Origin: Gemmobacter serpentinus
GTDB taxonomy: Bacteria; Pseudomonadota; Alphaproteobacteria; Rhodobacterales; Rhodobacteraceae
DNA: 64,000 bases
Assembly (NCBI RefSeq): GCF_008973825.1
Contig: NZ_WCHR01000017.1
Location: 124,001-188,000 of the forward strand
Direction: 5' to 3'
The notes beneath the pieces are model-generated. The model saw nothing but the letters and a program-made list of their open reading frames with translations, was not told the DNA's origin and ran no database searches. This document shows, piece after piece, positions 52,571 through 64,000 of this stretch (positions are counted from its first letter, which is position 1; each line of letters starts with the position of its first letter). A program made the position numbers and the translations under genes.

Positions 52571-52660
52571 GGACAGGTGGCCGAGTGGTCGAAGGCGCAC
52601 GCCTGGAAAGTGTGTAGGCGGGGAACCGTCTCGAGGGTTCGAATCCCTCTCTGTCCGCCA
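52571..52660 (+). tRNA. tRNA-Ser (GGA anticodon), attachment site of the downstream element
   Basis: Class II tRNA of 90 nt with encoded CCA. Acceptor GGACAGG pairs with TCTGTCC. The anticodon loop CTGGAAA within the CACGC/GTGTG stem gives anticodon GGA. It has a long variable arm and T-arm GAGGGTTCGAATCCCTC. An integrase gene begins 80 nt beyond its 3' end and points towards it, so the 3' half is the expected attachment core. Confidence 0.97.
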
Positions 52661-52740: not shown

Positions 52741-53766
52741 TCACCCTTCTTTACGTTCGAGCGCAAGCATTCCCTGCGCAGCGAGTTCTTTCCGGCCTGC
52801 CGCAACCGTGTAACGGGTCACTTCGGCAAGCGACTTATGGCCCGAGATAGCCATAATCTGGTGCGGGGTGCATCCGGCTTCTGCCAGTCGGCGGCAGGTG
52901 GCCTTGCGCAGCCCATGCGGCGAAAGCCCATCGGGCAAGCCCGCTTCGCGCACCATATCCCTAAACCAGTTCGTAAAGCCTGCCGGGGAAAACGGCCTGC
53001 CCTGAGCGGTCATCAGGAAGCTGAGATTGTCGAGCGGCAGCGCGTCAAGGATCGCCCGCAACTCGCTATGCAACGGAATATGCACGTCCTGCTTGGTCTT
53101 CTGTTGCGTGATGGAAAGGATTCCGCTGCGGACGTGCTGCCGCCCCATCCGCACCACGTCACTGCGGCGCTGGCCCGTGTAGAGCAAAAGCGCCAGTGCG
53201 AGGTGCGCACGGCTGCCGGGTTTGTGATGCGCTTCGAAGGCCGCGATGTGGTCCTCTTCCCAAGTCAGGAAGCCTTCGGATTTGTTGCGCACCTTGCGGA
53301 CGCCTTGGGTCGGATCATCGCGCCGCCAGCCACTTTCGACAGCATGGCGCATCAAGAGATGGATCATCCGCAGCATGTTGTTCGCGGCTGCGGGCGTGTC
53401 TGACTTCTTAGCGACGATCTTCTGGACGTGTTCGCGCTGCATCTCTTTCACAAGGCGGTGCCCGTGATCGGCCCGGAAGCGTTCGATGATGCCCCGGTAT
53501 GTCGCCTTTGTGGAATCGCTCAGCCCCTTGAAGTCGCTGGTCTTGTAGAAGCTGACGACAAGCGCAGAGATGCTGCCCTGCACTGTCAGAGTCTTTCCGA
53601 CTTCGACCTTCTCGCCATTCGCGGCCTTCTCATAGGCAGCCATGAATTCGGGGGTCCAAGGCAGGCCCGGCAGCGCCAGGCGGGGGAAACCCGGTCGGCG
53701 GTAATACCAGCGCGCATTTCCGTATCTGTCTTCGAATCCTTGGCAGTATTTGGGTGGTTTATTCAT
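52741..53766 (-). CDS. int: Tyrosine-type site-specific integrase
   Basis: 341-residue phage-type integrase. N-terminal SAM-like/arm-binding domain (about residues 60-150; FYKTSDFKGLSDSTKATYRG), then the catalytic domain with the full set of residues: Arg in LLLYTGQRRSDVV, Lys in TQQKTKQDVHI, HxxR in LSPHGLRKATCRR, His in ISGHKSLAEV and nucleophile Tyr in VTRYTVAAGR. ATG at 53766 (MNKPPKYCQGFEDRYG) lies 5 nt after the excisionase stop. It catalyses recombination at the tRNA-Ser 3' end. Confidence 0.95.
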   Translation of the reverse strand: MNKPPKYCQGFEDRYGNARWYYRRPGFPRLALPGLPWTPEFMAAYEKAANGEKVEVGKTLTVQGSISALVVSFYKTSDFKGLSDSTKATYRGIIERFRADHGHRLVKEMQREHVQKIVAKKSDTPAAANNMLRMIHLLMRHAVESGWRRDDPTQGVRKVRNKSEGFLTWEEDHIAAFEAHHKPGSRAHLALALLLYTGQRRSDVVRMGRQHVRSGILSITQQKTKQDVHIPLHSELRAILDALPLDNLSFLMTAQGRPFSPAGFTNWFRDMVREAGLPDGLSPHGLRKATCRRLAEAGCTPHQIMAISGHKSLAEVTRYTVAAGRKELAAQGMLALERKEG

Positions 53767-53771
53767 GAGTT

Positions 53772-54029
53772 TCACATGTCGCTCCAACTGTCTGTTGCAC
53801 TGTCAGAGCCGGAATCGTCACCCGGAAGCCTATCGAATGCCAAGTCCAAAGCGCGCACGTCCCAGATTTTACGGGTCCCAACGCGCTTGGGGCTGGGCAT
53901 CTCGCCAGCGATCACCATCTTGTCAAAGGTCGTGGGGCTGATGCCGATGTAGTCCGCCGCCTCCACACGCGACAGCCCCCGCCGAGTCGGCGGTGCAATC
54001 GGTGTGAAGGGGCGAACTTGCGTTTGCAT
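53772..54029 (-). CDS. AlpA-like/HTH_17 excisionase or regulator
   Basis: 85-residue protein with a MerR-superfamily winged helix of the AlpA/excisionase type (RRGLSRVEAADYIGISPTTF, then DKMVIAGEMPSPKRVGTRKI and WDVRALDLAFD). The C-terminus is Ser/Asp-rich. Start at 54029 (MQTQVRPFTPIAPPT). It is directly upstream of int with a 5-nt gap. AlpA-type proteins act as excision directionality factors and int activators; in PICIs they are a hallmark regulator. Confidence 0.85.
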   Translation of the reverse strand: MQTQVRPFTPIAPPTRRGLSRVEAADYIGISPTTFDKMVIAGEMPSPKRVGTRKIWDVRALDLAFDRLPGDDSGSDSATDSWSDM

Positions 54030-54033
54030 CGGT

Positions 54034-54222
54034 TCAGATAACGCCGTTCTTTGCGGCTTCAGCAGCTTCCGCCGCCTTGACCTCGGCAGCAGTGGCGGGC
54101 CGGGCTGCGCCCAGCTTGTCGAACTGCTTGGCCTGCACCGGGGTGGCGTCAAACACCGCTTTAGCCGGAACAATCACGTCCTCGGGCATGAGGATCTGAT
54201 GCTTTGCGTAGAGTTTTGTCAT
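54034..54222 (-). CDS. Small head-region protein A (62 aa)
   Basis: 62-residue protein starting MTKLYAKHQILMPEDVIVPA and ending in an Ala/Glu-rich tail. It aligns with the N-terminal 45 residues of the next gene upstream (54219-54551): both show L-x-A-x-H-x-IL-x-P-x-DV and a later F-(D/E)-AT-x2-QA-x-Q...AAR. It lacks that protein's C-terminal domain. ATGA overlap with its neighbour shows it belongs to the head operon. Function unknown; probably a minor capsid or connector accessory. Confidence 0.75.
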   Translation of the reverse strand: MTKLYAKHQILMPEDVIVPAKAVFDATPVQAKQFDKLGAARPATAAEVKAAEAAEAAKNGVI

Positions 54223-54551
54223 CTCTGTGAATCCTTGAAGAGTCCGACTTGGACCTTGTGTGTTGAGGTTGGCGCAGTTGCCGCCACGATCCCGATGGAA
54301 GGCGTAGCGGTCGCTTCCGCGACCACGCCCCCGGCGCGAACATTCCAGAAAGCTGGCGTTCCCGCGTCGAGGGCGATTTCAAGTGCCTTCGGCAGCTTGG
54401 CAATCTTTAGATCCGACAGCTTCACCTCACGGGCAGCCTTCAGCCCGATAAGCTGAGCCGCTTGCTGTGCCGTGGCTTCGAAGGACTGGCCGCGCGTGAT
54501 AACAACATCGCCCGGCAGCAGGATCGTATGGAAGGCAAGCAGCCTGGGCAT
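54219..54551 (-). CDS. Head-region protein B (110 aa), apparent chimera
   Basis: 110 residues. The N-terminal half (MPRLLAFHTILLPGDVVITR) matches the 62-aa protein encoded just downstream. The C-terminal half (IAKLPKALEIALDAGTPAFW, then ATPSIGIVAATAPTSTHKVQ) follows the pattern of the DUF2190 capsid-decoration protein encoded just upstream (FDLPKVSANTFALGAAVYWD, then NTKLGVAVAAAAASTATVTV). It thus looks like a fusion of its two neighbours. Probably capsid-associated. 3 nt separate it from the DUF2190 gene. Confidence 0.75.
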   Translation of the reverse strand: MPRLLAFHTILLPGDVVITRGQSFEATAQQAAQLIGLKAAREVKLSDLKIAKLPKALEIALDAGTPAFWNVRAGGVVAEATATPSIGIVAATAPTSTHKVQVGLFKDSQR

Positions 54552-54554
54552 GGG

Positions 54555-54881
54555 TCAGAAGCCCGACAGGCGGACGGTTACGGTTGCGGTCGAGGCGGCA
54601 GCCGCAGCAACGGCCACGCCCAGTTTGGTGTTGCTGGTGGCGGTGCTGGTCGCCAGTTCGGCGGTAGCATCCCAGTAGACGGCGGCACCAAGGGCGAAGG
54701 TATTGGCAGAGACCTTGGGCAGATCGAACACGCCCACGGTTGCCACATCGACGGCGGCACCACTGGCAGCATCACCGGACGCGATGCCGACGATTGCACC
54801 AGCGATCACAGGAAAGCCGGAAGCGACAGCAGCCGGGGCCGGAATGGTGATCGTGTCACCGCGTTGAGCAAATTTCTTCAT
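54555..54881 (-). CDS. DUF2190 capsid cement/decoration protein
   Basis: 108-residue DUF2190 protein, a family of capsid decoration (cement) proteins located next to major capsid genes. Start MKKFAQRGDTITIPAPAAVA; core PVIAGAIVGIASGDAASGAA and GVFDLPKVSANTFALGAAVY; C-terminal beta strand VTVRLSGF. It sits 3 nt after the head-tail joining gene. Expected to trimerise on the capsid exterior. Confidence 0.88.
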   Translation of the reverse strand: MKKFAQRGDTITIPAPAAVASGFPVIAGAIVGIASGDAASGAAVDVATVGVFDLPKVSANTFALGAAVYWDATAELATSTATSNTKLGVAVAAAAASTATVTVRLSGF

Positions 54882-54884
54882 GAT

Positions 54885-55100
54885 TTACAGTCCCTTGCTG
54901 GATTGCAGGCGGATCAGCGCATTGCGCCCCCGCTGAAGGTTGAAGATTTCGGAGTCGATCGCGGCAATTGCCCGCTCGATCTCGGATTGGCTGCGATAGG
55001 TCACAGACTCGCCGTTGCTATCGGTGAAGGTGCGGACGCCCGAGAACCGGGCATCCTGTAGCTTTTCGCGGTGTTCCCGCAGGCTTTGCACGCTGGACAT
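54885..55100 (-). CDS. Phage head-tail joining protein (gpW-like)
   Basis: 71-residue helical/beta protein: LREHREKLQDARFSGVRTFT, then GESVTYRSQSEIERAIAAID and the coiled tail SEIFNLQRGRNALIRLQSSK. This is the gpW-like head-completion pattern. ATG at 55100 overlaps the capsid stop (TAATG). It would plug the portal and offer the docking surface for a tail, which matters here because the element itself shows no tail genes. Confidence 0.8.
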   Translation of the reverse strand: MSSVQSLREHREKLQDARFSGVRTFTDSNGESVTYRSQSEIERAIAAIDSEIFNLQRGRNALIRLQSSKGL

Positions 55101-56947
55101 TACGCCCCCGCAGCCCGGTATGCGCCGCGCCAGTCGAGCCAGCCGCAGCCGAAGTCGAGCCATGCGCGGTATTTCAGCCCCAGCGTGTCCCAGGCCTCCT
55201 GGCGTTGGATCTGGACGCCCTGAGCGGCAGAGAGGTAGCCGTATTGCAGCGAGGCCACGCGGGCCGGATCAGCCAGCAGATACCATGCGTTGCCGGTCAG
55301 ACGCGGCTCCACGACAAGCGACAGCTTGCCCGAGAACACCGCCACGTCATCCGACTTGGTGGCATAGATCGAGGCCAGCAGCTTTTCGGCTGCCGTTTCC
55401 AGATCGGGCGAGACGATCAGGAATTTCGGCTGGGCGTCGATGATCGTTTTGCCGTCGAGGCCCTTCACCGTGCGCATGTGCTTGCGCGCTGCCGACAGGG
55501 AGGTTTCCGACAAGACAGAGCCAGCGCCCGTGGCGAGGTTGCCGCGACCAGCCGCGAAAACTGCCGTGCCGTCCGACAGATTGGGATTGCTGGTCAGCAG
55601 CGCCACCATTTCTTCGGCTTCGGTCTGAGCCGCTGCCTGACCCATTGCGGCGGTCATGTCGCCCAACAGGCCCAGATCGTCGTCGATCAGCAGCTTGCGG
55701 CTGACATTGATCGCGCGGCCAAAGGTTTTCAGCGACATGCTTTCGCCTGCCTCGGCCCGGCTGGTGTGCTTGAACTCGCCATGTTCGGTCATCTCTTGAA
55801 GACGGCCCATCTCGCCCAGACGGATCGAAGTGGACTCCTTGAAGTTCGGCAAGGTGCGCTGACGGGCCAGAGCCTTCAGGGGCGATTCCGCTGCCTGATA
55901 GGCTTGGGCGGCAACCTTGCCCATCGCGTTGCTGACCAGAAGCGGGAAGTCACTGGTGCCATGCGCGCGGGCAAATACCTCATCCCCAGACATGCCGCGC
56001 ACCGAAACGCCCGCACGGGTCAGGCAATCGGCAGCAAGATCGCGCATCGACATGTTGACGAATTCGCGGCTGGCCTCGGGCAGATCACCGCCAGCCATGC
56101 GGAAGGCCAGAGCATCGGCAGCGCGAGTCTGGATCTGGGCCGGGTCGGTATGATCGCGGCGGATGCTGACTTTCGGGGCCTGACGGGTCAGCATGGCTTC
56201 CCGTGCAGCCTCGCGCACCTCATCTTCCGTCACAGCCTCTTCGGCCAGGTTCTCGCCCCAGGTATCGGGCAGATTGCAGGCAGAGCGCAGCGTTTCAATC
56301 AGCGCAGCGCGAGTCTCAAGATCAAAGGGCATTTCTGCACTCCGTTGAATGATTGCGTTTCGGTCGGCAGGCACTGGCACAAGGCTGACCTCCAAAAGCC
56401 GCCATCTGGTGGCGGTCTTGGTCCTTGTGCCGTCAGGGTTTCGGCTCTCGCGCCATGCGAGAACTTGGTATCCGGCGCTGACGTGGCGAATGACGCCATC
56501 CTTCACGCGCTGGAAAATCGGTTCGATGTCATCCGCTTGCCCAAGGCGTAGCGTTGCGCTGACGCTGGGGCCGTCGATCACAAGGCCAGATGCCCGCCCG
56601 ACAGTTTCGCGGGCGGCTTGGCGGTGATCAGTCAACAGCGGGAAGTCGTCGCTATCGCTGAATTCCAGCCCGGCGGGATCGAGGATTTCGAGGAATGGCC
56701 CCTTAGCGTCACGCCTCTGCACCGGAGTCGCCGTGGCGACGACAGCACGGAATTCGCGGCTGGCCTCATCCAGATCACCAACGCGCGGCATGGAACGGAA
56801 AAGCCGGTCGCCCGATGTGGTATCGAGCGGGCCTCTGCCGGTTTCGCGCGTGTATTGGGCCTTGTCCGGGTTCGCGGTCAGCTTGGGCGCGGTGATGATC
56901 GCGGCTTTCGCCGGATTGCCAGTCAGACGGTGAAGCGGTTTGTTCAT
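55100..56947 (-). CDS. Prohead protease-major capsid protein fusion
   Basis: 615-residue fusion. N-terminal caudoviral prohead protease (about residues 60-205), with catalytic His in FPLLTDHRQAARETVG and Ser in VIRHVSAGYQVLAW. A Glu/Arg-rich scaffold-like linker follows (about 210-290, EEAVTEDEVREAAREAMLTR). The major capsid protein is about 300-615 (FVNMSMRDLAADCLTRAGVS, then SLKTFGRAINVSRKLLIDDD and VEPRLTGNAWYLLADPARVA). Fusions of this kind are known in alphaproteobacterial prophage-like elements; self-cleavage would release protease and scaffold. ATGA overlap with portal, TAATG with gpW. Confidence 0.92.
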   Translation of the reverse strand: MNKPLHRLTGNPAKAAIITAPKLTANPDKAQYTRETGRGPLDTTSGDRLFRSMPRVGDLDEASREFRAVVATATPVQRRDAKGPFLEILDPAGLEFSDSDDFPLLTDHRQAARETVGRASGLVIDGPSVSATLRLGQADDIEPIFQRVKDGVIRHVSAGYQVLAWRESRNPDGTRTKTATRWRLLEVSLVPVPADRNAIIQRSAEMPFDLETRAALIETLRSACNLPDTWGENLAEEAVTEDEVREAAREAMLTRQAPKVSIRRDHTDPAQIQTRAADALAFRMAGGDLPEASREFVNMSMRDLAADCLTRAGVSVRGMSGDEVFARAHGTSDFPLLVSNAMGKVAAQAYQAAESPLKALARQRTLPNFKESTSIRLGEMGRLQEMTEHGEFKHTSRAEAGESMSLKTFGRAINVSRKLLIDDDLGLLGDMTAAMGQAAAQTEAEEMVALLTSNPNLSDGTAVFAAGRGNLATGAGSVLSETSLSAARKHMRTVKGLDGKTIIDAQPKFLIVSPDLETAAEKLLASIYATKSDDVAVFSGKLSLVVEPRLTGNAWYLLADPARVASLQYGYLSAAQGVQIQRQEAWDTLGLKYRAWLDFGCGWLDWRGAYRAAGA

Positions 56948-58311
56948 GCTTTACTGCCCTTTTGTTCAACTGAATGTTGATTAGCTGGGAGACCAAGGCC
57001 GGACTCGCGGCTGCGATCTGCGGCAATCTCGGCATCAACCTGGGCCACGTCATAGCCAAGCTGAGCCACGGCCATACGGCGACTGATCAGGCCCATATCG
57101 AGCATTTCGCGGGTAGCCTTGGCATCGGATTCCGGGTCAACCCATTGCGGTTTCGGGAAATGCCATTCGGCCTTGGCCGCAGGATCGGCGGTGTTCGAGC
57201 CGCGCAAGGATTCCAAAAGTTGCCACCGTGCCCAGATGCGATTGAGTGCAGGCACCAGCAACGTGTGCTGGATCGCCTCAATATGCGCGCGGAACTGCAC
57301 CAGAGCCGTGCGGGCGCTGGAATAGTTCACGCCCCGCATATCGCCCGACAGCAGGAACTCGGGGATCTGCAAGCCCGCAGCGATCTGGCGCAGGCTGACG
57401 GCCACCAGATCAACCGCCTGGCTCATCTGTTGCGGGGTGCTGAAACGCACGTCCCAGCCCTGCGGCAGAACGCGCATGACGCCCGGCTCAAGGCTCAGAT
57501 CCAACGGATTGCCGCCTTCGCCCTGATCGAAAGGATTGGGGCCAGTGCCGTTCTGGTCGATCACGAAACCGGCCATCATGGATTGGATCTTTGCGTTGAC
57601 TTGCAGCGCGTCGAGAAGATGGCTCAGTTCGTTCAAAGGCAGAATGGTAGAGGCAAACCACGACAGGCCTCGAGTCTGGGCAGCGCCAAGGCGGCGGAAG
57701 AGGTGGATCACGTCCGCAGCTTCAACGCGCACCGGGGCGCGGAAGGTCTGGAATTGATCAGTCGGACGCGCGGGGCGGAAGTGATAAGCAACGGGCAGAT
57801 CGTCGCTATCGTATTCGATGCCCGCCGCGATGTAGCGGCCTTCGCCCAGTTCGAGGGTATAGGCTTCGTCCAGTTGCTCGGCAGGGACATGCTGCAACCG
57901 CAACGCCCCTTCCGCATCGGTGCGCAGGATGAGAAGGCTTTCGCCATCCGTCACCAGTGCGTCAGCCACTTCTGCGAGCAGAGCGCCGAATTGATTGGCC
58001 TCTGCCCACTCGCTGAAAGCAGCGTCTTGCTCTTCGCGCGTGTCATCATCGCCCAAGGTGGCGGCGGTTGGTCCATAGCCGACAAGGGCGGTTTTCAGGA
58101 TCTCAGCAGCATTGCCCGCCGTGGGATCATTATGCCGCAAATGCCGTGCCCGCCCGCGCACCTGAGACGCGCCTGCCAGCACTTCGGCACCAGTTGCGCC
58201 GAAAGCCGGGGTGGCGGACCAGCGCTTGCCGCTAGCGCCTTCCAGCATACGGACGGCGGCAGTACGCGGTGCAGGCGTGTCGCGGGTGAAGAGGCGAGAC
58301 AGTAGGCCCAT
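56944..58311 (-). CDS. Phage portal protein (lambda gpB family)
   Basis: 455-residue lambda-type portal. Start at 58311 (MGLLSRLFTRDTPAPRTAAV). Core: GRARHLRHNDPTAGNAAEIL, then EEQDAAFSEWAEANQFGALL, the conserved VADALVTDGESLLIL, and PEFLLSGDMRGVNYSSARTA. Forms the dodecameric vertex channel for DNA packaging. Overlaps the protease-capsid gene by 4 nt, and follows the MerR-like gene by 5 nt. Confidence 0.95.
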   Translation of the reverse strand: MGLLSRLFTRDTPAPRTAAVRMLEGASGKRWSATPAFGATGAEVLAGASQVRGRARHLRHNDPTAGNAAEILKTALVGYGPTAATLGDDDTREEQDAAFSEWAEANQFGALLAEVADALVTDGESLLILRTDAEGALRLQHVPAEQLDEAYTLELGEGRYIAAGIEYDSDDLPVAYHFRPARPTDQFQTFRAPVRVEAADVIHLFRRLGAAQTRGLSWFASTILPLNELSHLLDALQVNAKIQSMMAGFVIDQNGTGPNPFDQGEGGNPLDLSLEPGVMRVLPQGWDVRFSTPQQMSQAVDLVAVSLRQIAAGLQIPEFLLSGDMRGVNYSSARTALVQFRAHIEAIQHTLLVPALNRIWARWQLLESLRGSNTADPAAKAEWHFPKPQWVDPESDAKATREMLDMGLISRRMAVAQLGYDVAQVDAEIAADRSRESGLGLPANQHSVEQKGSKA

Positions 58312-58316
58312 GAAGG

Positions 58317-58862
58317 TCAGCCTTCCGAACGCCGAATTGCGCCCATAATAGGTGCGAGAAGATTGGTGAACGGGAAGGTCGTGACCCCTTCGAAGCCGTG
58401 GCGCAACTCCGTCCAATCGGGATCAACAGCGCGGCGGCGATTGTTCACAATCCAGTGGCCACTAAAACCAAGGACTCCGTCGATGCGAACATAGCCAACT
58501 TCGAAAACCCACGTTCTAGCCTTTTCCGGGCTTTCATACGCGGCAAGCAGATCGGAGGCGGCAGCATCAAAGCTGTAGATAGCGGCAACGTCTTGCGCTT
58601 CGAACCTCATCTGTGCATCGAACTTCGCGAGTTCGCCAGAGGCAAGATTTCGGTCGAGCGCGGCAAGCAACATGCGCGCGCGGTAAACCTCTTTCTCTGG
58701 AAAAAGCAGGGCACCCTTTTTCCCGTAGTGGTCTGGGATGGGTTGCAAGATGCCGCGACCTGCCAAGCCCTTCAGTTGGTTGAAGATGGGTTCCTCAGGG
58801 CGTTTTTCGACGGTGGCGATCAGGTCCGAAATGTCGCGCAGGGTATAGCGTGTCTGGGGCAT
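58317..58862 (-). CDS. MerR-like DNA-binding protein of the element (181 aa)
   Basis: Start at 58862 (MPQTRYTLRDISDLIATVEK), because AAGGAG lies 6 nt upstream; a second ATG at 58868 abuts it. The first 75 residues look like a MerR-type winged helix (TLRDISDLI, then FNQLKGLAGRGILQPI and LFPEKEVYRARMLLAALDRN). The C-terminal 100 residues are of unknown fold (FEVGYVRIDGVLGFSGHWIV). It lies 5 nt upstream of the portal gene, so it is transcribed with the head genes. A GAATTG/CAATTC palindrome is 34 nt upstream. Regulator is the best guess; a packaging or head role is possible. Confidence 0.65.
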   Translation of the reverse strand: MPQTRYTLRDISDLIATVEKRPEEPIFNQLKGLAGRGILQPIPDHYGKKGALLFPEKEVYRARMLLAALDRNLASGELAKFDAQMRFEAQDVAAIYSFDAAASDLLAAYESPEKARTWVFEVGYVRIDGVLGFSGHWIVNNRRRAVDPDWTELRHGFEGVTTFPFTNLLAPIMGAIRRSEG

Positions 58863-58895
58863 GGGCATCTCCTTCCCCCGCAATCTATCAGATCG

Positions 58896-58908
58896 GAATT
58901 GACAATTC
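58896..58908. promoter_or_regulatory. Palindrome upstream of the MerR-like gene
   Basis: GAATTG - A - CAATTC; another GAATTG half-site lies near 58928. It sits in the start of an AT-rich stretch that probably contains the promoter of the head operon. Confidence 0.4.
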
Positions 58909-59042
58909 AACACTGAAGATTCCTGTAGAATTGTTAAATCCGCTATGCTATGAAGGCCTCATCCCAGAAGTGGGTTCCATAGTTCCTCCTTGCGACACAG
59001 GGCGGGGCGGCTCCGGTCGCCCCCTCCACCAAGAATTCAAAT

Positions 59043-59458: not shown

Positions 59459-59953
59459 TTGGCTGGTAGAGGAAATCCAATTTTTGACCGCCTTTGCGCG
59501 GACAGTGATGATATTGAATCCCTAGTCGCATACGCTCTGTATAAAAAGCACAAGCGTGACTGGGCGGAGAATTACCGCAAAACACATGGTAGTGATCCAA
59601 AAACTGCGGATGATGATGCTTTTGCCAGTGCTGTTTCCACTGACGGCCAACTTCAACTATATCGGCAAAATGCTCAGAACCTGATTATCGCTTTCGCAGA
59701 CCAGATGGTTGAAGAAGTAAAACCAGATATTGAAAAAGAAGCTATCACTGCGAGAATTGAAGCAGCTACCGCTAAGATTTCGGGTGCTGGCTCCTTTGCA
59801 AAACAGATGCTTTCTGGTCTGACTGCATCTCTTATTACCACATTTGTACTGATAATTCTAACGATTGCATCCGCACTGTTTGGGGTGGACCCGATAGATG
59901 GTCTAAATGAACTAGTCGGAAATAGCTCATCGAAAGACATTTCGGCGGATTGA
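59459..59953 (+). CDS. Membrane-anchored hypothetical cargo protein (164 aa)
   Basis: Soluble, charged N-terminal region of about 115 residues (FDRLCADSDDIESLVAYALY, then YKKHKRDWAENYRKTHG and AFADQMVEEVKPDIEKE). One strong membrane helix lies near residues 125-147 (ASLITTFVLIILTIASALFG), with a short acidic C-terminal tail. TTG start at 59459 with a weak SD. 15 nt after the 59-aa gene, so a two-gene transcript. AT-rich relative to neighbours. Family not recognised; the topology resembles small membrane effectors of phage-encoded exclusion or defence systems, but that is conjecture. Confidence 0.65.
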   Translation: MAGRGNPIFDRLCADSDDIESLVAYALYKKHKRDWAENYRKTHGSDPKTADDDAFASAVSTDGQLQLYRQNAQNLIIAFADQMVEEVKPDIEKEAITARIEAATAKISGAGSFAKQMLSGLTASLITTFVLIILTIASALFGVDPIDGLNELVGNSSSKDISAD

Positions 59954-60214: not shown

Positions 60215-61972
60215 TCACCCTCCTAGCCATTTGCTTTTAATCACGACAGGCGGTCGCTTCGGTGCCGCCTGACTCGCAAGTTCTTCGGCCCGCCTGTCAA
60301 CACTCTGCCCGATCAGGTTACGCACGGCCAGCGCATACACGCTGGCGTCAAGCGTTTCTGCCCGTTTGCCTTTGATCCGCTCGAACCGGGCTTCCGGCTT
60401 GCCGCGCACATAGCGCACCACACGCCGCTCAGAGGCCAGTTGTTCAAAGAAGATCGGCTGCAAGGCTTCACCGAAACGGATGCCCTGATTGCGCCCGACA
60501 CGGGCAAACAGCGCGGATTTCGCGGCATCGACGCCCACAATCCAAAGGTGCTGGCCCTTGGTGCCGGATCTCTGGAAGATCGGACGCGAGAATCCTGCAA
60601 CGCCCTTGATTGGCACGACACGCCGCCCGAACCGGGGGCGACAGAAACCCATGACGGTTTCAAGGTGCCCGCCGTCAGACGAGTCCACCGCGCAGGCGTC
60701 AATCCTGATCGTGCCGCCGTTCGGGTGCTGCCACGTCTCTTTCAGCAGGGAGTCGAGTTCCTGCCAGATCGTCTCGCCGTCGATTGGCCCCCAGAAAACG
60801 CGATGATCGAGCACAAGCCAATCCGTTTCCGTGTGGCCCATCAGCACGATTTCCAGGCGGTCATCCTGACAGTCGGCTCCTGCCGTGATCCAAAGGATCT
60901 CATGCGGCAGGTTGTCCAGACTGAAGGCTTCGCGCCGTGCGAACAATTCGTGTTCGTCAAAATCCTCGCCTTCCGTCTTCCAAGGCTGGCCCAGAATGGT
61001 GTTTGTGAACACTTGCAGCGTCTCGGGCGCGCGCTTAGCCAACAGGAATTCCGCCGCTAGCTCGCCCCATCGGGCATTATGGTGTGGGCTGATCAGGCAA
61101 TTCACGGCAAAGCCAGCATGGCCCTTCACCTCGGGCGCAGTGGCCCGCCAACGGCCTTGCGCGACCATCTGCGGCTTGAACCGCTCTTCCACGACACAGC
61201 CCGCGATAGGGCAAACCCAATGTGCCGAATCCGGGTCGTTTTCTTTCCATTGGATCGAGGCCCAAGTGATTTCGCTGTATTCACCGCATGAGGGGCAGAG
61301 GCATTCGAAGATCCGGCGATCTGACTCTGAATAAAGGCGGCTGATCGGCCCGAAATCGAATACAGGAGTCGAGCCTGCCAAAATTTTGCGGTCGCGGAAC
61401 GTAAGAGTCCGCATCTCGGCCAGCTTAATCGGGTCGCCCTCTTGGGTGGTTTCGTAGCCGTCGATCTCATCCATTGCCAGAAAGCGCGTGGTGTGACGGC
61501 GCAGGTTACGGGGTGATTTCGCAGCAAGGAATTTCAGACTGCCGCCAGGAAATCGCCGCGCTAGCATTGTGCTGCGCCCGGACTCGTCGGCATCATCTGA
61601 CAGCAGGCCGCGCAGGGCGGGCGATGCGTCGAACAAGGATTCCAGTTCAACGCTGAAATCCCGCGCATCGTCGGCAGTGGGCTGCAAGGCGATGATCGGC
61701 GCGGGCGCATTGGCGACGAAATGGGCCAGCGTGGCGCTGAGCCATTGCGTGTAGCCAATCCGTGCCCCCTTCAAAATCGTAATACGCTCGATCTCGGGAT
61801 CTTCGATTGCCTCGCACCAGCCACGCTGGAAAGGCCAAAGCTGCATTCTGCCCGGCAGGGCTGACGCGCTGGCGGGAATGTAGACGCTGGACTCGATCCA
61901 GTCAGCAAGCGGCACGTTCGGCGGCGGCAGCAATGCTTGCAGGGCTTTGTTGCGGACGATTTCAATTCCCAT
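60215..61972 (-). CDS. terL: Terminase large subunit (gpA family)
   Basis: 585-residue packaging motor. ATPase half: Walker A-like ITILKGARIGYTQWLSATLA (about residue 68), then PTADDARDFSVELESLFD and Walker B-like TRFLAMDEIDGYE. A zinc-binding segment lies in CLCPSCGEYSEITWA. Nuclease half: ITAGADCQDDRLEIVLMGH and ACAVDSSDGGHLETV, whose Asp residues fit the RNase H-like active site. Start at 61972 (MGIEIVRNKALQALL). Overlaps terS by 11 nt. This is the lambda gpA-type, matching the lambda-type portal. Confidence 0.95.
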   Translation of the reverse strand: MGIEIVRNKALQALLPPPNVPLADWIESSVYIPASASALPGRMQLWPFQRGWCEAIEDPEIERITILKGARIGYTQWLSATLAHFVANAPAPIIALQPTADDARDFSVELESLFDASPALRGLLSDDADESGRSTMLARRFPGGSLKFLAAKSPRNLRRHTTRFLAMDEIDGYETTQEGDPIKLAEMRTLTFRDRKILAGSTPVFDFGPISRLYSESDRRIFECLCPSCGEYSEITWASIQWKENDPDSAHWVCPIAGCVVEERFKPQMVAQGRWRATAPEVKGHAGFAVNCLISPHHNARWGELAAEFLLAKRAPETLQVFTNTILGQPWKTEGEDFDEHELFARREAFSLDNLPHEILWITAGADCQDDRLEIVLMGHTETDWLVLDHRVFWGPIDGETIWQELDSLLKETWQHPNGGTIRIDACAVDSSDGGHLETVMGFCRPRFGRRVVPIKGVAGFSRPIFQRSGTKGQHLWIVGVDAAKSALFARVGRNQGIRFGEALQPIFFEQLASERRVVRYVRGKPEARFERIKGKRAETLDASVYALAVRNLIGQSVDRRAEELASQAAPKRPPVVIKSKWLGG

Positions 61973-62489
61973 GTGCCACGCCCTCCAAAGCGGTGCGGAT
62001 TTCCCGGTCGAGGGTCGCAATGTCGGTGCTGGTCAGATGCGGCAGGCCCGCCCCGCAACGGGATGGAACCGCAAGTAAGGCGTTGCGCAGATCACGCAGG
62101 ATGCCCGCCCATTCACGGCTGACGGCATCGGCAGGCACCAACTCGCCACGCTCACGGGCAACGCGCGCCTCTTCTTTGTCGGCTTGGGCGCGTGTGAGCC
62201 GCAGCTTTTCGGCCCTAAGATCATCGGTATCACCGCCAGCAGCAGGACGCCCGCCAGAGCGAGAAGCGACAGAGCGCAGTTGCTCGATATAGCGCCCGAT
62301 GCTTTCGGCCACGTCATAGCGCCCGCGTCCGCTGCGAACGAACAAGCCTTCCCGCGCTTTGGTGCGAACCTGCGGCAGGGAAAGCCGGGTGAGCGCGGCC
62401 ATGCCTCTTTCGTCCAGTTCGAGGGGAAGGGCGGAATCCGGCTTTTGTGGCCCACTGCCGCCCAGAAGATCGTCAAGATCATCATACAT
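61962..62489 (-). CDS. terS: Terminase small subunit (Nu1-like)
   Basis: 175-residue DNA-recognition subunit. N-terminal winged-helix segment LDERGMAALTRLSLPQVRTK, then KAREGLFVRSGRGRYDVAES. A central Arg/Glu-rich coiled coil (LRAEKLRLTRAQADKEEARV) includes the typical RLTRAQADKEE signature of phage DNA-packaging Nu1 proteins. The C-terminal part contacts TerL. Start at 62489 (MYDDLDDLLGGSGPQKPD). Overlaps terL by 11 nt and the 56-aa ORF by 8 nt. It would define the pac/cos specificity of the element. Confidence 0.88.
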   Translation of the reverse strand: MYDDLDDLLGGSGPQKPDSALPLELDERGMAALTRLSLPQVRTKAREGLFVRSGRGRYDVAESIGRYIEQLRSVASRSGGRPAAGGDTDDLRAEKLRLTRAQADKEEARVARERGELVPADAVSREWAGILRDLRNALLAVPSRCGAGLPHLTSTDIATLDREIRTALEGVAHGN

Positions 62490-62652
62490 GCGCGGAATCC
62501 CAATTCGAAAAAATCGTGTGAAGAGGAACAAGCTGCGGCTCAGCGTGCCCCGCACGGCGGTGGCGGGGGGAAGGACCCGAAGTTGCGATAGGATCGAACG
62601 TTTTCACGTCAGCCCAATCCTTTGCGATACAGCGCATCTTTCTGCCTTTCAT
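62482..62652 (-). CDS. Small bridging ORF (56 aa) between primase and terS
   Basis: ATG at 62652 overlaps the primase stop (TAATG), with AAGGAG 8 nt upstream inside the primase 3' end. It ends by overlapping the terS start by 8 nt. It encodes MKGRKMRCIAKDWADVKTFD and then a Pro/His-rich C-terminus ending IFSNWDSAHV. No family recognised. The precise stop-start overlaps at both ends and the SD argue that it is translated. Confidence 0.55.
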   Translation of the reverse strand: MKGRKMRCIAKDWADVKTFDPIATSGPSPRHRRAGHAEPQLVPLHTIFSNWDSAHV

Positions 62653-64000
62653 TACAGGACTCCTTCATCCGCATCGTCCGGACAACCGGACACTCCTAAA
62701 GGAGTGTGTCCGTGTCCGTCCGGATTTCGACGCTTTGCCATCTTGGACATTCCGGGATTTGTCCGGACATTGTCCGAATTGTCCGGGCCAAGATCATCGA
62801 AATCGTCGCAGCTATCGTCGAAGATGCGATACAGAGCATTTTCGAAGATCACCGCGCCTTTCTGGACGAGACCTTTCAATGCTCTGTCCGTCGCCTTCCT
62901 GCGGCTGTCCGGATTGTCCGAAGGGGAAATCTTGCGCCCGTCGATACACAGCTTGCGCAGATCCGCTTCGGATACTTCGCCGCCTGAAGTGTGGATCAGA
63001 TCGAGCACCGCGCGCTCGGAGGGCGTTACCCTCACTGCCTCGGGCGCTAGGGCTGAATTCAATTCCTCGCAACGCGGCAAGGTGATCTGATCGCCATCTT
63101 CATCAGCGCCGCCATCTTCAATTGCGATGCGGAAAGCAATGTCACGATCACAAGTGCCGTTGCGGTTTTTGGTCAGCTTGCCTCGGATCACGCCGGACTC
63201 GTCTTTCTTCACATGCAACGCCACATCCAGCGCACCGTTCAGTAGAGAGTGCCCGCGCGGTGTGCCGCCTTCTGCCTTCGTGTCGTGGTGAACCAGAATG
63301 ACAGCCGCGCCCCATTTCGTCAGAGCACGGGCCACGGCAACAACGCGCCCCATCGCATCGGCGCTGTTTTCTTCCAGGCCAGGGAACGCCATTGCGAGGG
63401 TGTCAATGACGATCAACTTGGGGCGTTGTGCCTTCACTGCCCGCGCAAGGTCTTTCAGGTCTGGGGAGTCGGCTGCCAGCAGGTTCGACACGCCACCGAC
63501 AAGAAAGAACTGGTCCGCCTCGCCGTGGGCTTGCTGTAAGGCGCGAACACGCCCGCGCATCCCGTGTTCATCCTCGGCAGCGACATAGAACACCGCGCCC
63601 GGCTTCGTCCGCATTCCGAATGCTTCCCGCCCTTGCGCCACAGCATAGCCCAAGAAGGGCGTCAGCAGCGACTTGCCCGCACCGGGGGCACCGAACACGC
63701 AAGCAACGTCACGCTCTGCCAGCATCCCCTTTATAAGATAGCTGCGAGTTTGAACGGTTGCGCATTGTGCGGGTGACAGGAAGGTCAGGCGGGACGCGGG
63801 CTTGTCGTCTTTGGCCTCTGGTGCCGCTTCCTCTTCGCCAAGGTCATCAAAACCCAGCGTGTGATCCGGTTCAGATGGATCAAGCCAGCCGTGCTTCTTG
63901 GCTTCGGTAATGATCGTGCCGCCGCCGATATTGCCAGCTTCACCGGGGCGGAAGCTTTTCCATCTGTCCCAGCATTCCTTGCGATCATAGGAGGGATGTT
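62652..64000 (-). CDS. Primase/RepA-like AAA ATPase of the element (5' end outside window)
   Basis: The visible 448 codons continue past the right edge. At the edge is a PriCT-2-like segment (HPSYDRKECWDRWKSFRPGE), so the missing N-terminus is probably a primase-polymerase domain. Then a RepA-like AAA_25 ATPase: Walker A CVFGAPGAGKSLL, the segment FYVAAEDEHGMRGRVRALQ, Walker B LIVIDTLAMAFPG, and sensor VILVHHDTKAEGGTPRGHS. The C-terminal winged-helix-like region (PSERAVLDLIHTSGGEVSEA) ends in an acidic tail. An internal ATG at 63725 is not the true start. Replication initiator/helicase of the element. Confidence 0.85.
   Translation of the reverse strand, partial: HPSYDRKECWDRWKSFRPGEAGNIGGGTIITEAKKHGWLDPSEPDHTLGFDDLGEEEAAPEAKDDKPASRLTFLSPAQCATVQTRSYLIKGMLAERDVACVFGAPGAGKSLLTPFLGYAVAQGREAFGMRTKPGAVFYVAAEDEHGMRGRVRALQQAHGEADQFFLVGGVSNLLAADSPDLKDLARAVKAQRPKLIVIDTLAMAFPGLEENSADAMGRVVAVARALTKWGAAVILVHHDTKAEGGTPRGHSLLNGALDVALHVKKDESGVIRGKLTKNRNGTCDRDIAFRIAIEDGGADEDGDQITLPRCEELNSALAPEAVRVTPSERAVLDLIHTSGGEVSEADLRKLCIDGRKISPSDNPDSRRKATDRALKGLVQKGAVIFENALYRIFDDSCDDFDDLGPDNSDNVRTNPGMSKMAKRRNPDGHGHTPLGVSGCPDDADEGVL

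What the first reader, a model, noticed from the sequence alone, without database searches (positions are those of the whole stretch)
54034..54881. Three adjacent small capsid-region genes related by domain shuffling (A, A+B, B)
The 110-aa protein at 54219 aligns in its first half with the 62-aa protein next to it, and in its second half with the DUF2190 decoration protein on its other side (shared LPK, (A/F)-x-W-(N/D), ...(I/L)G(I/V)..A... pattern). Tandem genes encoding domain A, a chimera A+B and domain B suggest duplication and fusion within the decoration layer. This could yield a heteromeric capsid surface or an adaptor that recruits helper tails.
Basis: partly seen in the sequence, partly recalled or inferred. 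Interest (0 to 1): 0.6.

Follow-up and report, generated by a model that had tools for sequence, protein, structure and literature searches.

The report
Satellite capsid gene from swapped halves
In a small virus-like element of a bacterium, a gene between two capsid-region genes is a hybrid of its neighbours: the front of one joined to the back half of the other, which is the core of a known kind of capsid-cementing protein; it looks like an old recombination product that was kept, found so far in a single genome.

Summary
The similarity is real. The 110-aa protein (54219-54551, minus strand) matches the neighbouring 62-aa protein A over residues 1-52 and the DUF2190 protein B over residues 39-104. 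Both matches beat all 5000 shuffles, and it alone of 5151 ORFs matches both profiles. "A, A+B, B" needs correcting: only the second half of B is present, by prediction the five-stranded beta-tulip core. A is probably not a decoration domain: its predicted fold resembles DUF7210 proteins and the C-terminal domain of lambda's packaging chaperone gpFI, a small common fold without sequence support.

The element is a 12.5-kb island at tRNA-Ser with packaging and capsid genes and no tail gene found, like capsid-forming PICIs. In nine related elements A directly follows B and there is no chimera. An A-B fusion between genes ordered B-A is what a tandem duplication or unequal crossover between mid-B and mid-A would leave. 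The chimera is far more diverged than its sampled relatives, so it is old, fast-evolving or imported. Best reading: an accessory head protein. Heteromeric capsids are untested; tail recruitment has no support.

The parts
54219..54551 (-). Chimera gene, 110 aa: residues 1-52 A-like, 39-104 B-like (C-terminal half of DUF2190)
54420..54551 (-). Chimera N module (residues 1-44), predicted small beta-beta-beta-beta-alpha-beta domain similar to DUF7210 proteins and the gpFI C-terminal domain
   Evidence: AlphaFold; VIA-align 2lsm Z 6.0, rmsd 1.8, 43 aligned; BFVD DUF7210 matches
54240..54407 (-). Chimera C module (residues 49-104), five predicted strands in register with the second half of B (beta-tulip core)
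54034..54222 (-). A: 62-aa protein, intact relative of the chimera N module; its ATG overlaps the chimera stop (ATGA)
54555..54881 (-). B: 108-aa DUF2190 / Phage_cement_2 capsid cement protein
   Evidence: Pfam PF09956 95.5 bits, cut-off 24; phrog_122 E 9.3e-31; fold match to phiCD508 gp48, Z 13.5
54885..55163 (-). Head-tail adaptor Ad1-like protein (longest ORF 92 aa; true start uncertain)
   Evidence: phrog_2545 E 3.1e-10
55100..56947 (-). Prohead protease-major capsid protein fusion, 615 aa
   Evidence: PF25209, PF04586; phrog_4523
56944..58416 (-). Portal protein (longest ORF)
   Evidence: PF05136
58317..58913 (-). 198-aa protein of unknown function, in the place of a 178-aa protein in L035
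   Evidence: no Pfam (E 1) or PHROG match
59459..59953 (+). 164-aa ORF on the other strand, PHROG of unknown function
   Evidence: phrog_25194 E 1.5e-10; no Pfam match
60215..62020 (-). Terminase large subunit (GpA-type)
   Evidence: phrog_15
61962..62555 (-). Terminase small subunit
   Evidence: phrog_57
62652..64000 (-). Part of an 831-aa primase/helicase that runs past the window end (L130 10653-13148)
53772..54029 (-). Excisionase / HTH regulator (longest ORF to 54173; probable start 54029)
   Evidence: phrog_25900, phrog_66; start inferred from relatives
52741..53787 (-). Tyrosine integrase
   Evidence: PF00589
52645..52660 (.). Attachment-site core: 3' end of tRNA-Ser (52571-52660), 16-bp direct repeat whose other copy is L130 13163-13178 (would be window 65162-65177)

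Best explanation
The 110-aa gene is an in-frame recombinant of the adjacent gene pair B (DUF2190 cement) and A (gpFI/DUF7210-like small head-region protein) of a satellite that encodes its own capsid. Genes in the order B then A, joined by a tandem duplication or unequal crossover with breakpoints in mid-B and mid-A, give exactly B, A(N)-B(C), A. Shown: both homologies, their register, the gene order in relatives, the ORF's integrity. Inferred: the route of origin and the function. The most likely function is an accessory head protein, in which the five-stranded tulip core of the cement protein has lost its own N-terminal part and has instead a small domain of the kind found in the head-bound lambda chaperone gpFI. 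It would be translated after B (3-nt gap) and before A (ATGA overlap), and bind the element's own capsid as a minor cement or packaging-aid protein beside B.
For: Profile matches of both halves, above all 5000 shuffles; hhalign. In nine relatives B is followed by A with 11-14 nt between and no chimera, so an A-before-B fusion cannot come from simple read-through of adjacent genes. Codon positions: identity chimera/B 0.48, 0.56, 0.31 (62 codons) and chimera/A 0.52, 0.63, 0.31 (52 codons) for positions 1, 2, 3, the pattern of protein-level constraint. Best AlphaFold model mean pLDDT 85.8: residues 49-104 carry the same five strands as B 50-105. Four of six lambda gpD / P21 SHP rows align to B from residue 46-50 on (1c5e, 5mfd, 8xqb, 1td3), the half kept in the chimera; 1td0 and the NMR model 1vd0 align more loosely from residues 7 and 11. 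The N module matches two DUF7210 proteins (rmsd 1.3 over 42 columns each) and the gpFI C-terminal domain. [quoted passage not shown]
Against: Found in one genome only, so neither conservation nor selection could be tested across orthologues. The chimera is 18-36% identical to the B genes compared (at most 42) and 37-46% to five A genes, with by far the longest tip in both trees (1.28 vs next 0.24; 1.84 vs next 0.75), so it is not a recent copy of its neighbours. No Shine-Dalgarno-like sequence is seen before its ATG (read by eye). Only two of the five AlphaFold models are confident (85.8, 84.7, then 71.4, 69.3, 68.8), on an alignment built partly from half proteins. Ribosomal L9 and GINS domains match the N module about as well as gpFI, and no row for the chimera reaches Z 8. 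Among the 50 rows shown of 193 PDB matches and of 552 viral matches, those that span both modules have rmsd of about 9 to 12.
Confidence: 0.5

Rival explanations
1. The chimera arose long ago in another, unsampled phage or satellite and was brought in whole, together with or between B and A, by recombination.
For: Both halves lie far outside the sampled diversity; third codon positions are saturated against the resident B and A (0.31) although B itself is 83% identical to that of its relative L035, with third positions 0.69.
Against: No such source found: no match at E 1 in 50,697 phage records or 72,556 plasmid records, none in the viral and genome contig scans (these reach only close relatives), and in the whole genomes searched the only full-length match is the window's own.
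Confidence: 0.3
2. The chimera is a leftover of a duplication that has lost its function and is decaying.
For: Single genome, very long branch, no clear ribosome-binding site before its start, missing the N-terminal half of B.
Against: Intact 110-codon frame with short junctions on both sides, identity highest at second codon positions, LPK, G, W and IG residues of B kept, confident fold in two of five models. In a 12.5-kb element idle DNA might be expected to be lost (inference).
Confidence: 0.15
3. One reading: a heteromeric decoration layer, or an adaptor that recruits helper tails.
For: A mixed oligomer of homologous tulip proteins is on record (SHP with gpD; PMC7602432, passages).
Against: Nothing found links A or the chimera to tails; a head-tail adaptor homologue is encoded separately.
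Confidence: 0.12
4. Chance similarity of small, alanine-rich proteins.
For: B-half identity is only 27%, and one shuffle of 5000 reached 18.5 bits and one of another 5000 reached 18.9.
Against: 26.0 bits in register over 66 residues, hhalign E 4.4e-7, and position between the very two genes it matches.
Confidence: 0.02

Closest known systems
DUF2190 / Phage_cement_2 (PF09956); solved relative phiCD508 gp48 (9gay)
   Same: B is a clear member; the chimera C module has the same five predicted strands and shares motifs
   Different: The chimera lacks the N-terminal ~40 residues (four of nine predicted strands) and is below the Pfam cut-off
Lambda gpD / P21 SHP beta-tulip decoration proteins
   Same: In four of six rows they align to B from residue 46-50 on, the half kept in the chimera; chimera C module to 1c5e Z 6.3
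   Different: No sequence match found; middling Z values
Lambda gpFI C-terminal domain, YqbF, DUF7210 proteins
   Same: Predicted fold of the N module / A; both are small genes of the head region (gpFI's place in lambda is recalled)
   Different: No Pfam, PHROG or PDB sequence match; the fold is small and common
Capsid-forming PICIs
   Same: Integrase, excisionase, terminases, portal, protease-capsid, connector, no tail gene found, 12.5 kb
   Different: Helper dependence untested; HNH endonuclease not seen

Membership tests
DUF2190 / Phage_cement_2 (chimera) | Pfam PF09956 gathering score of 24 bits | tested here: not met
   14.3 bits, profile positions 49-102 of 103
DUF2190 / Phage_cement_2 (gene B) | Pfam PF09956 gathering score of 24 bits | tested here: met
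   95.5 bits, positions 2-103 of 103
Beta-tulip fold (chimera C module) | Five-stranded antiparallel barrel like gpD or DUF2190 cement | tested here: inconclusive
   Five strands predicted; Z 7.9 to 9gb0 and 6.3 to 1c5e, both under 8; no helix between strands 3 and 4 as in the review's definition
gpFI / DUF7210 (A and chimera N module) | Sequence-profile match to a curated family | tested here: not met
   Five A proteins: no gpFI or DUF7210 model in Pfam at E 10; PHROGs only phrog_19269 at E 0.065 for one of five. Chimera: phrog_2616, unknown function, E 0.034
gpFI / DUF7210 (A and chimera N module) | Fold of the gpFI C-terminal domain | tested here: inconclusive
   2lsm Z 6.0, rmsd 1.8 over 43; L9 and GINS domains score alike
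gpFI / DUF7210 (A and chimera N module) | Binds the capsid lattice and aids packaging | not testable with these tools
   needs biochemistry
Capsid-forming PICI | Own terminases, portal, protease, capsid protein, connector | tested here: met
Capsid-forming PICI | No tail genes between the attachment sites | tested here: met
   no tail family among the window and L035 ORFs scanned; the smallest ORFs and those beyond the window other than the primase were not scanned
Capsid-forming PICI | HNH endonuclease in the packaging module | tested here: inconclusive
   not seen among the ORFs scanned; no dedicated search
Capsid-forming PICI | Transfer depends on helper-phage tails | not testable with these tools
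   needs induction experiments

The most novel reading that the evidence does not exclude
The chimera is a two-state head protein: its gpFI-like domain sits on the unexpanded prohead lattice during packaging while its tulip core can only dock, possibly in mixed trimers with B, once the shell expands, so that one protein links packaging to cementing. It would show that a half-domain swap, replacing the N-terminal part of a beta-tulip cement protein, can make a new capsid protein in one recombination step.
Probability: 0.1. Interest if true: 0.7.

Novelty: new variant of a known kind. Interest (0 to 1): 0.4.

Why it matters
If the protein is made, it is a natural example of how head proteins are remodelled: a single mid-gene duplication joint yields a third gene that joins the core of a cement protein to a small domain of a packaging-chaperone type. 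It gives a natural test of which part of DUF2190 binds the capsid and which trimerises, and a lead for the function of small orphan genes beside capsid genes.

Tried and rejected
Chance similarity: rejected by shuffles and profiles. A recent duplication of the resident genes: rejected, as both halves are too diverged. The equal spacing of the two half-repeats (327 and 329 nt) was first taken as evidence for tandem duplication, but it follows from any A-B chimera of this length lying between B and A, so it is not used. A as a truncated relative of the N half of B: no similarity. Orthologues of the chimera: none found. In whole genomes at E 1e-3, 3 of 295 family genomes had a match (own; G286, a B gene at 21%; G015, 28% with three stops inside), 2 of 11 genus genomes (own; G296, the L035-type A gene), 1 of 390 order and 1 of 385 class genomes (own in both); these sets overlap. 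Contig scans found none (close relatives only). A search for A in the family gave 22 weak matches besides the own genome at E 0.1 or less; eight of them lie in frames of 928-944 aa; all were read as chance and not followed up. Two literature searches found no paper (DUF2190 with decoration protein and capsid; DUF7210), and one on duplication and fusion of decoration proteins listed two papers that I did not open. Passages of PMC11445458, PMC11868608, PMC3224144 and PMC4493119 were seen and are not needed for the argument. Families absent from the structure lists are not excluded by that.

Rows dropped: in the B set, L043, L046, L047, L052 and L054 as copies of other loci, the window itself, and L083 (E above 1e-15); L053 and L092 had no capsid match. 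Ten of the 58 capsid-bearing sources had no B match at E 0.01. One search failed (thread setting) and was rerun.

Full report
WHAT IS THERE. The window lies in genome G000, contig C11. G296 is of the same genus, and its contig C22 has the length of the Gemmobacter aquatilis contig of L035 (233,985 bases), so the host is probably a Gemmobacter (inference). The finding sits in a compact island, mostly on the minus strand: integrase, excisionase, A, chimera, B, a head-tail adaptor homologue, a protease-capsid fusion, portal, a 198-aa protein, terminase large and small subunits and an 831-aa primase/helicase that runs past the window, with a 164-aa ORF on the other strand. A 16-bp direct repeat at the 3' end of tRNA-Ser (window 52645-52660) recurs at L130 13163-13178, giving an element of about 12.5 kb; L035 has a like repeat at its own tRNA-Ser gene and is about 12.2 kb. 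No tail gene was found among the ORFs scanned. This fits the description of capsid-forming PICIs, which depend on a helper phage only for tails (PMC10690885, passages read); helper dependence itself was not tested.

BLASTP gives A vs chimera 40% over 52 residues and B vs chimera 27% over 62 residues without gaps. Profiles are clearer: hhalign probability 97.5 for A and 92.7 for B, and none to speak of between A and B. Profiles built without window sequences score the chimera 42.2 bits (nine A genes) and 26.0 bits (41 B genes), against best shuffles of 11.6 and 18.9 in 5000. It is the only one of 5151 unique ORFs to match both. The A match ends near residue 52 and the B match starts near residue 39-43.

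WHAT NEEDS CORRECTING. B is a 108-residue DUF2190 cement protein (Pfam 95.5 bits, cut-off 24). The chimera carries only its second half. AlphaFold gives B nine strands (mean pLDDT 85.8), and chimera residues 49-104 carry the last five. Structure comparison puts B next to phiCD508 gp48 (9gay, Z 13.5, rmsd 2.0, 99 aligned), a capsid decoration protein whose trimers each touch nine capsid proteins (PMC11948020, passages). Of six gpD or SHP rows, four align to B from residue 46-50 to 108; 1td0 and the NMR model 1vd0 align more loosely from residues 7 and 11. A review (PMC7602432, passages) describes the beta-tulip as a five-stranded barrel with a helix between strands 3 and 4, joined to a separate subdomain; the helix is not predicted in the chimera. 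So the break lies about where the tulip core begins, and the chimera is best described as a tulip-like core with a new N-terminal module.

WHAT A IS. A has no family match of note and no solved relative by sequence. In the chimera model its part (residues 1-44) is a small beta-beta-beta-beta-alpha-beta domain. In BFVD it matches many small phage proteins, among them two DUF7210 proteins at rmsd 1.3 over 42 columns. In the PDB it matches the lambda gpFI C-terminal domain (2lsm, Z 6.0, rmsd 1.8, 43 aligned) and YqbF (2hjq, Z 5.0), but ribosomal L9 and GINS domains at similar scores. gpFI, bound to the prohead's capsid lattice, helps the terminase-DNA complex to associate with the prohead (PMC4856287, passages). 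That its C-terminal domain does the head binding, and that YqbF was likened to it, is recalled from Popovic et al. 2012, which is not held. The gpFI link is therefore a structural lead, not membership.

DISTRIBUTION AND ORIGIN. Ten distinct elements with an A gene were found: the window, L035, L036, L038, L044, L132, L134, L135, L137 and L138 (L043, L052, L131, L133 and L136 are copies). In the other nine A follows B with 11-14 nt between and no chimera; in L132 the B gene is itself a fusion. Of 58 capsid-bearing sources (window and copies included), 48 have a B match and 7 an A match. No orthologue of the chimera was found. Because the genes stand B then A while the chimera reads A then B, read-through of neighbours cannot make it; a tandem duplication or unequal crossover with joints in mid-B and mid-A does so in one step and also explains why it lies between them. 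L132 shows that a joint in mid-B can form: a portal N-terminus is fused in frame to the B C-half. Against a recent event, the chimera is 18-36% identical to the B genes compared (the own B ranks 25th of at most 42) and 37-46% to five A genes, with the longest tip in both trees (support within the A tree is weak, that of the B tree was not printed). Third codon positions are saturated (0.31) while second positions are most alike (0.56 and 0.63), as in a gene kept for its protein. So the event is old, or the chimera evolved fast, or it came from an unsampled element.

HOW IT MAY WORK. Translation is probably coupled: the chimera starts 3 nt after the B stop without a visible Shine-Dalgarno sequence, and A starts within the chimera stop (ATGA). 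With a tulip-like core from a capsid cement protein and a domain of a kind found in a head-bound chaperone, the simplest reading is an accessory head protein of this element's own capsid, either a minor cement protein or a packaging aid. Mixed trimers with B are possible, since SHP and gpD can mix on lambda capsids (PMC7602432, passages), but were not testable. Nothing found points to tail recruitment.

LIMITS. One genome; no orthologues to test selection; two of five AlphaFold models confident for the chimera, on an alignment partly of half proteins; no match spanning both modules at a good rmsd among the rows shown; no complex prediction.

Noticed in passing
L132 1622-2002 (viral contig of 42.8 kb): A 126-aa ORF joins a portal N-terminus in frame to the C half of the DUF2190 protein, as if portal, capsid and adaptor genes had been deleted from this element; A and excisionase/integrase-like ORFs follow.
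   Followed up: partly
window 52571-52660 and L035 12912-13001: Two related elements sit at different tRNA-Ser genes (anticodons GGA and GCT) with different 16-bp repeats, so the integrase or its site has switched.
   Followed up: partly
window 58317-58913; L035 7122-7658: A protein of 178-198 aa before the portal gene has no PHROG match, and in Pfam none (window) or only a sub-threshold HTH match (L035).
   Followed up: partly
window 59459-59953: A 164-aa ORF on the plus strand inside the otherwise minus-strand island matches PHROGs of unknown function (phrog_25194, E 1.5e-10).
   Followed up: no
L054-L091: Capsid relatives of this satellite are common in the family: 68 of 295 genomes, own included, have a capsid match at E 1e-30; many have a DUF2190 gene and an integrase-like ORF soon after it, suggesting a large group of such satellites.
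   Followed up: partly
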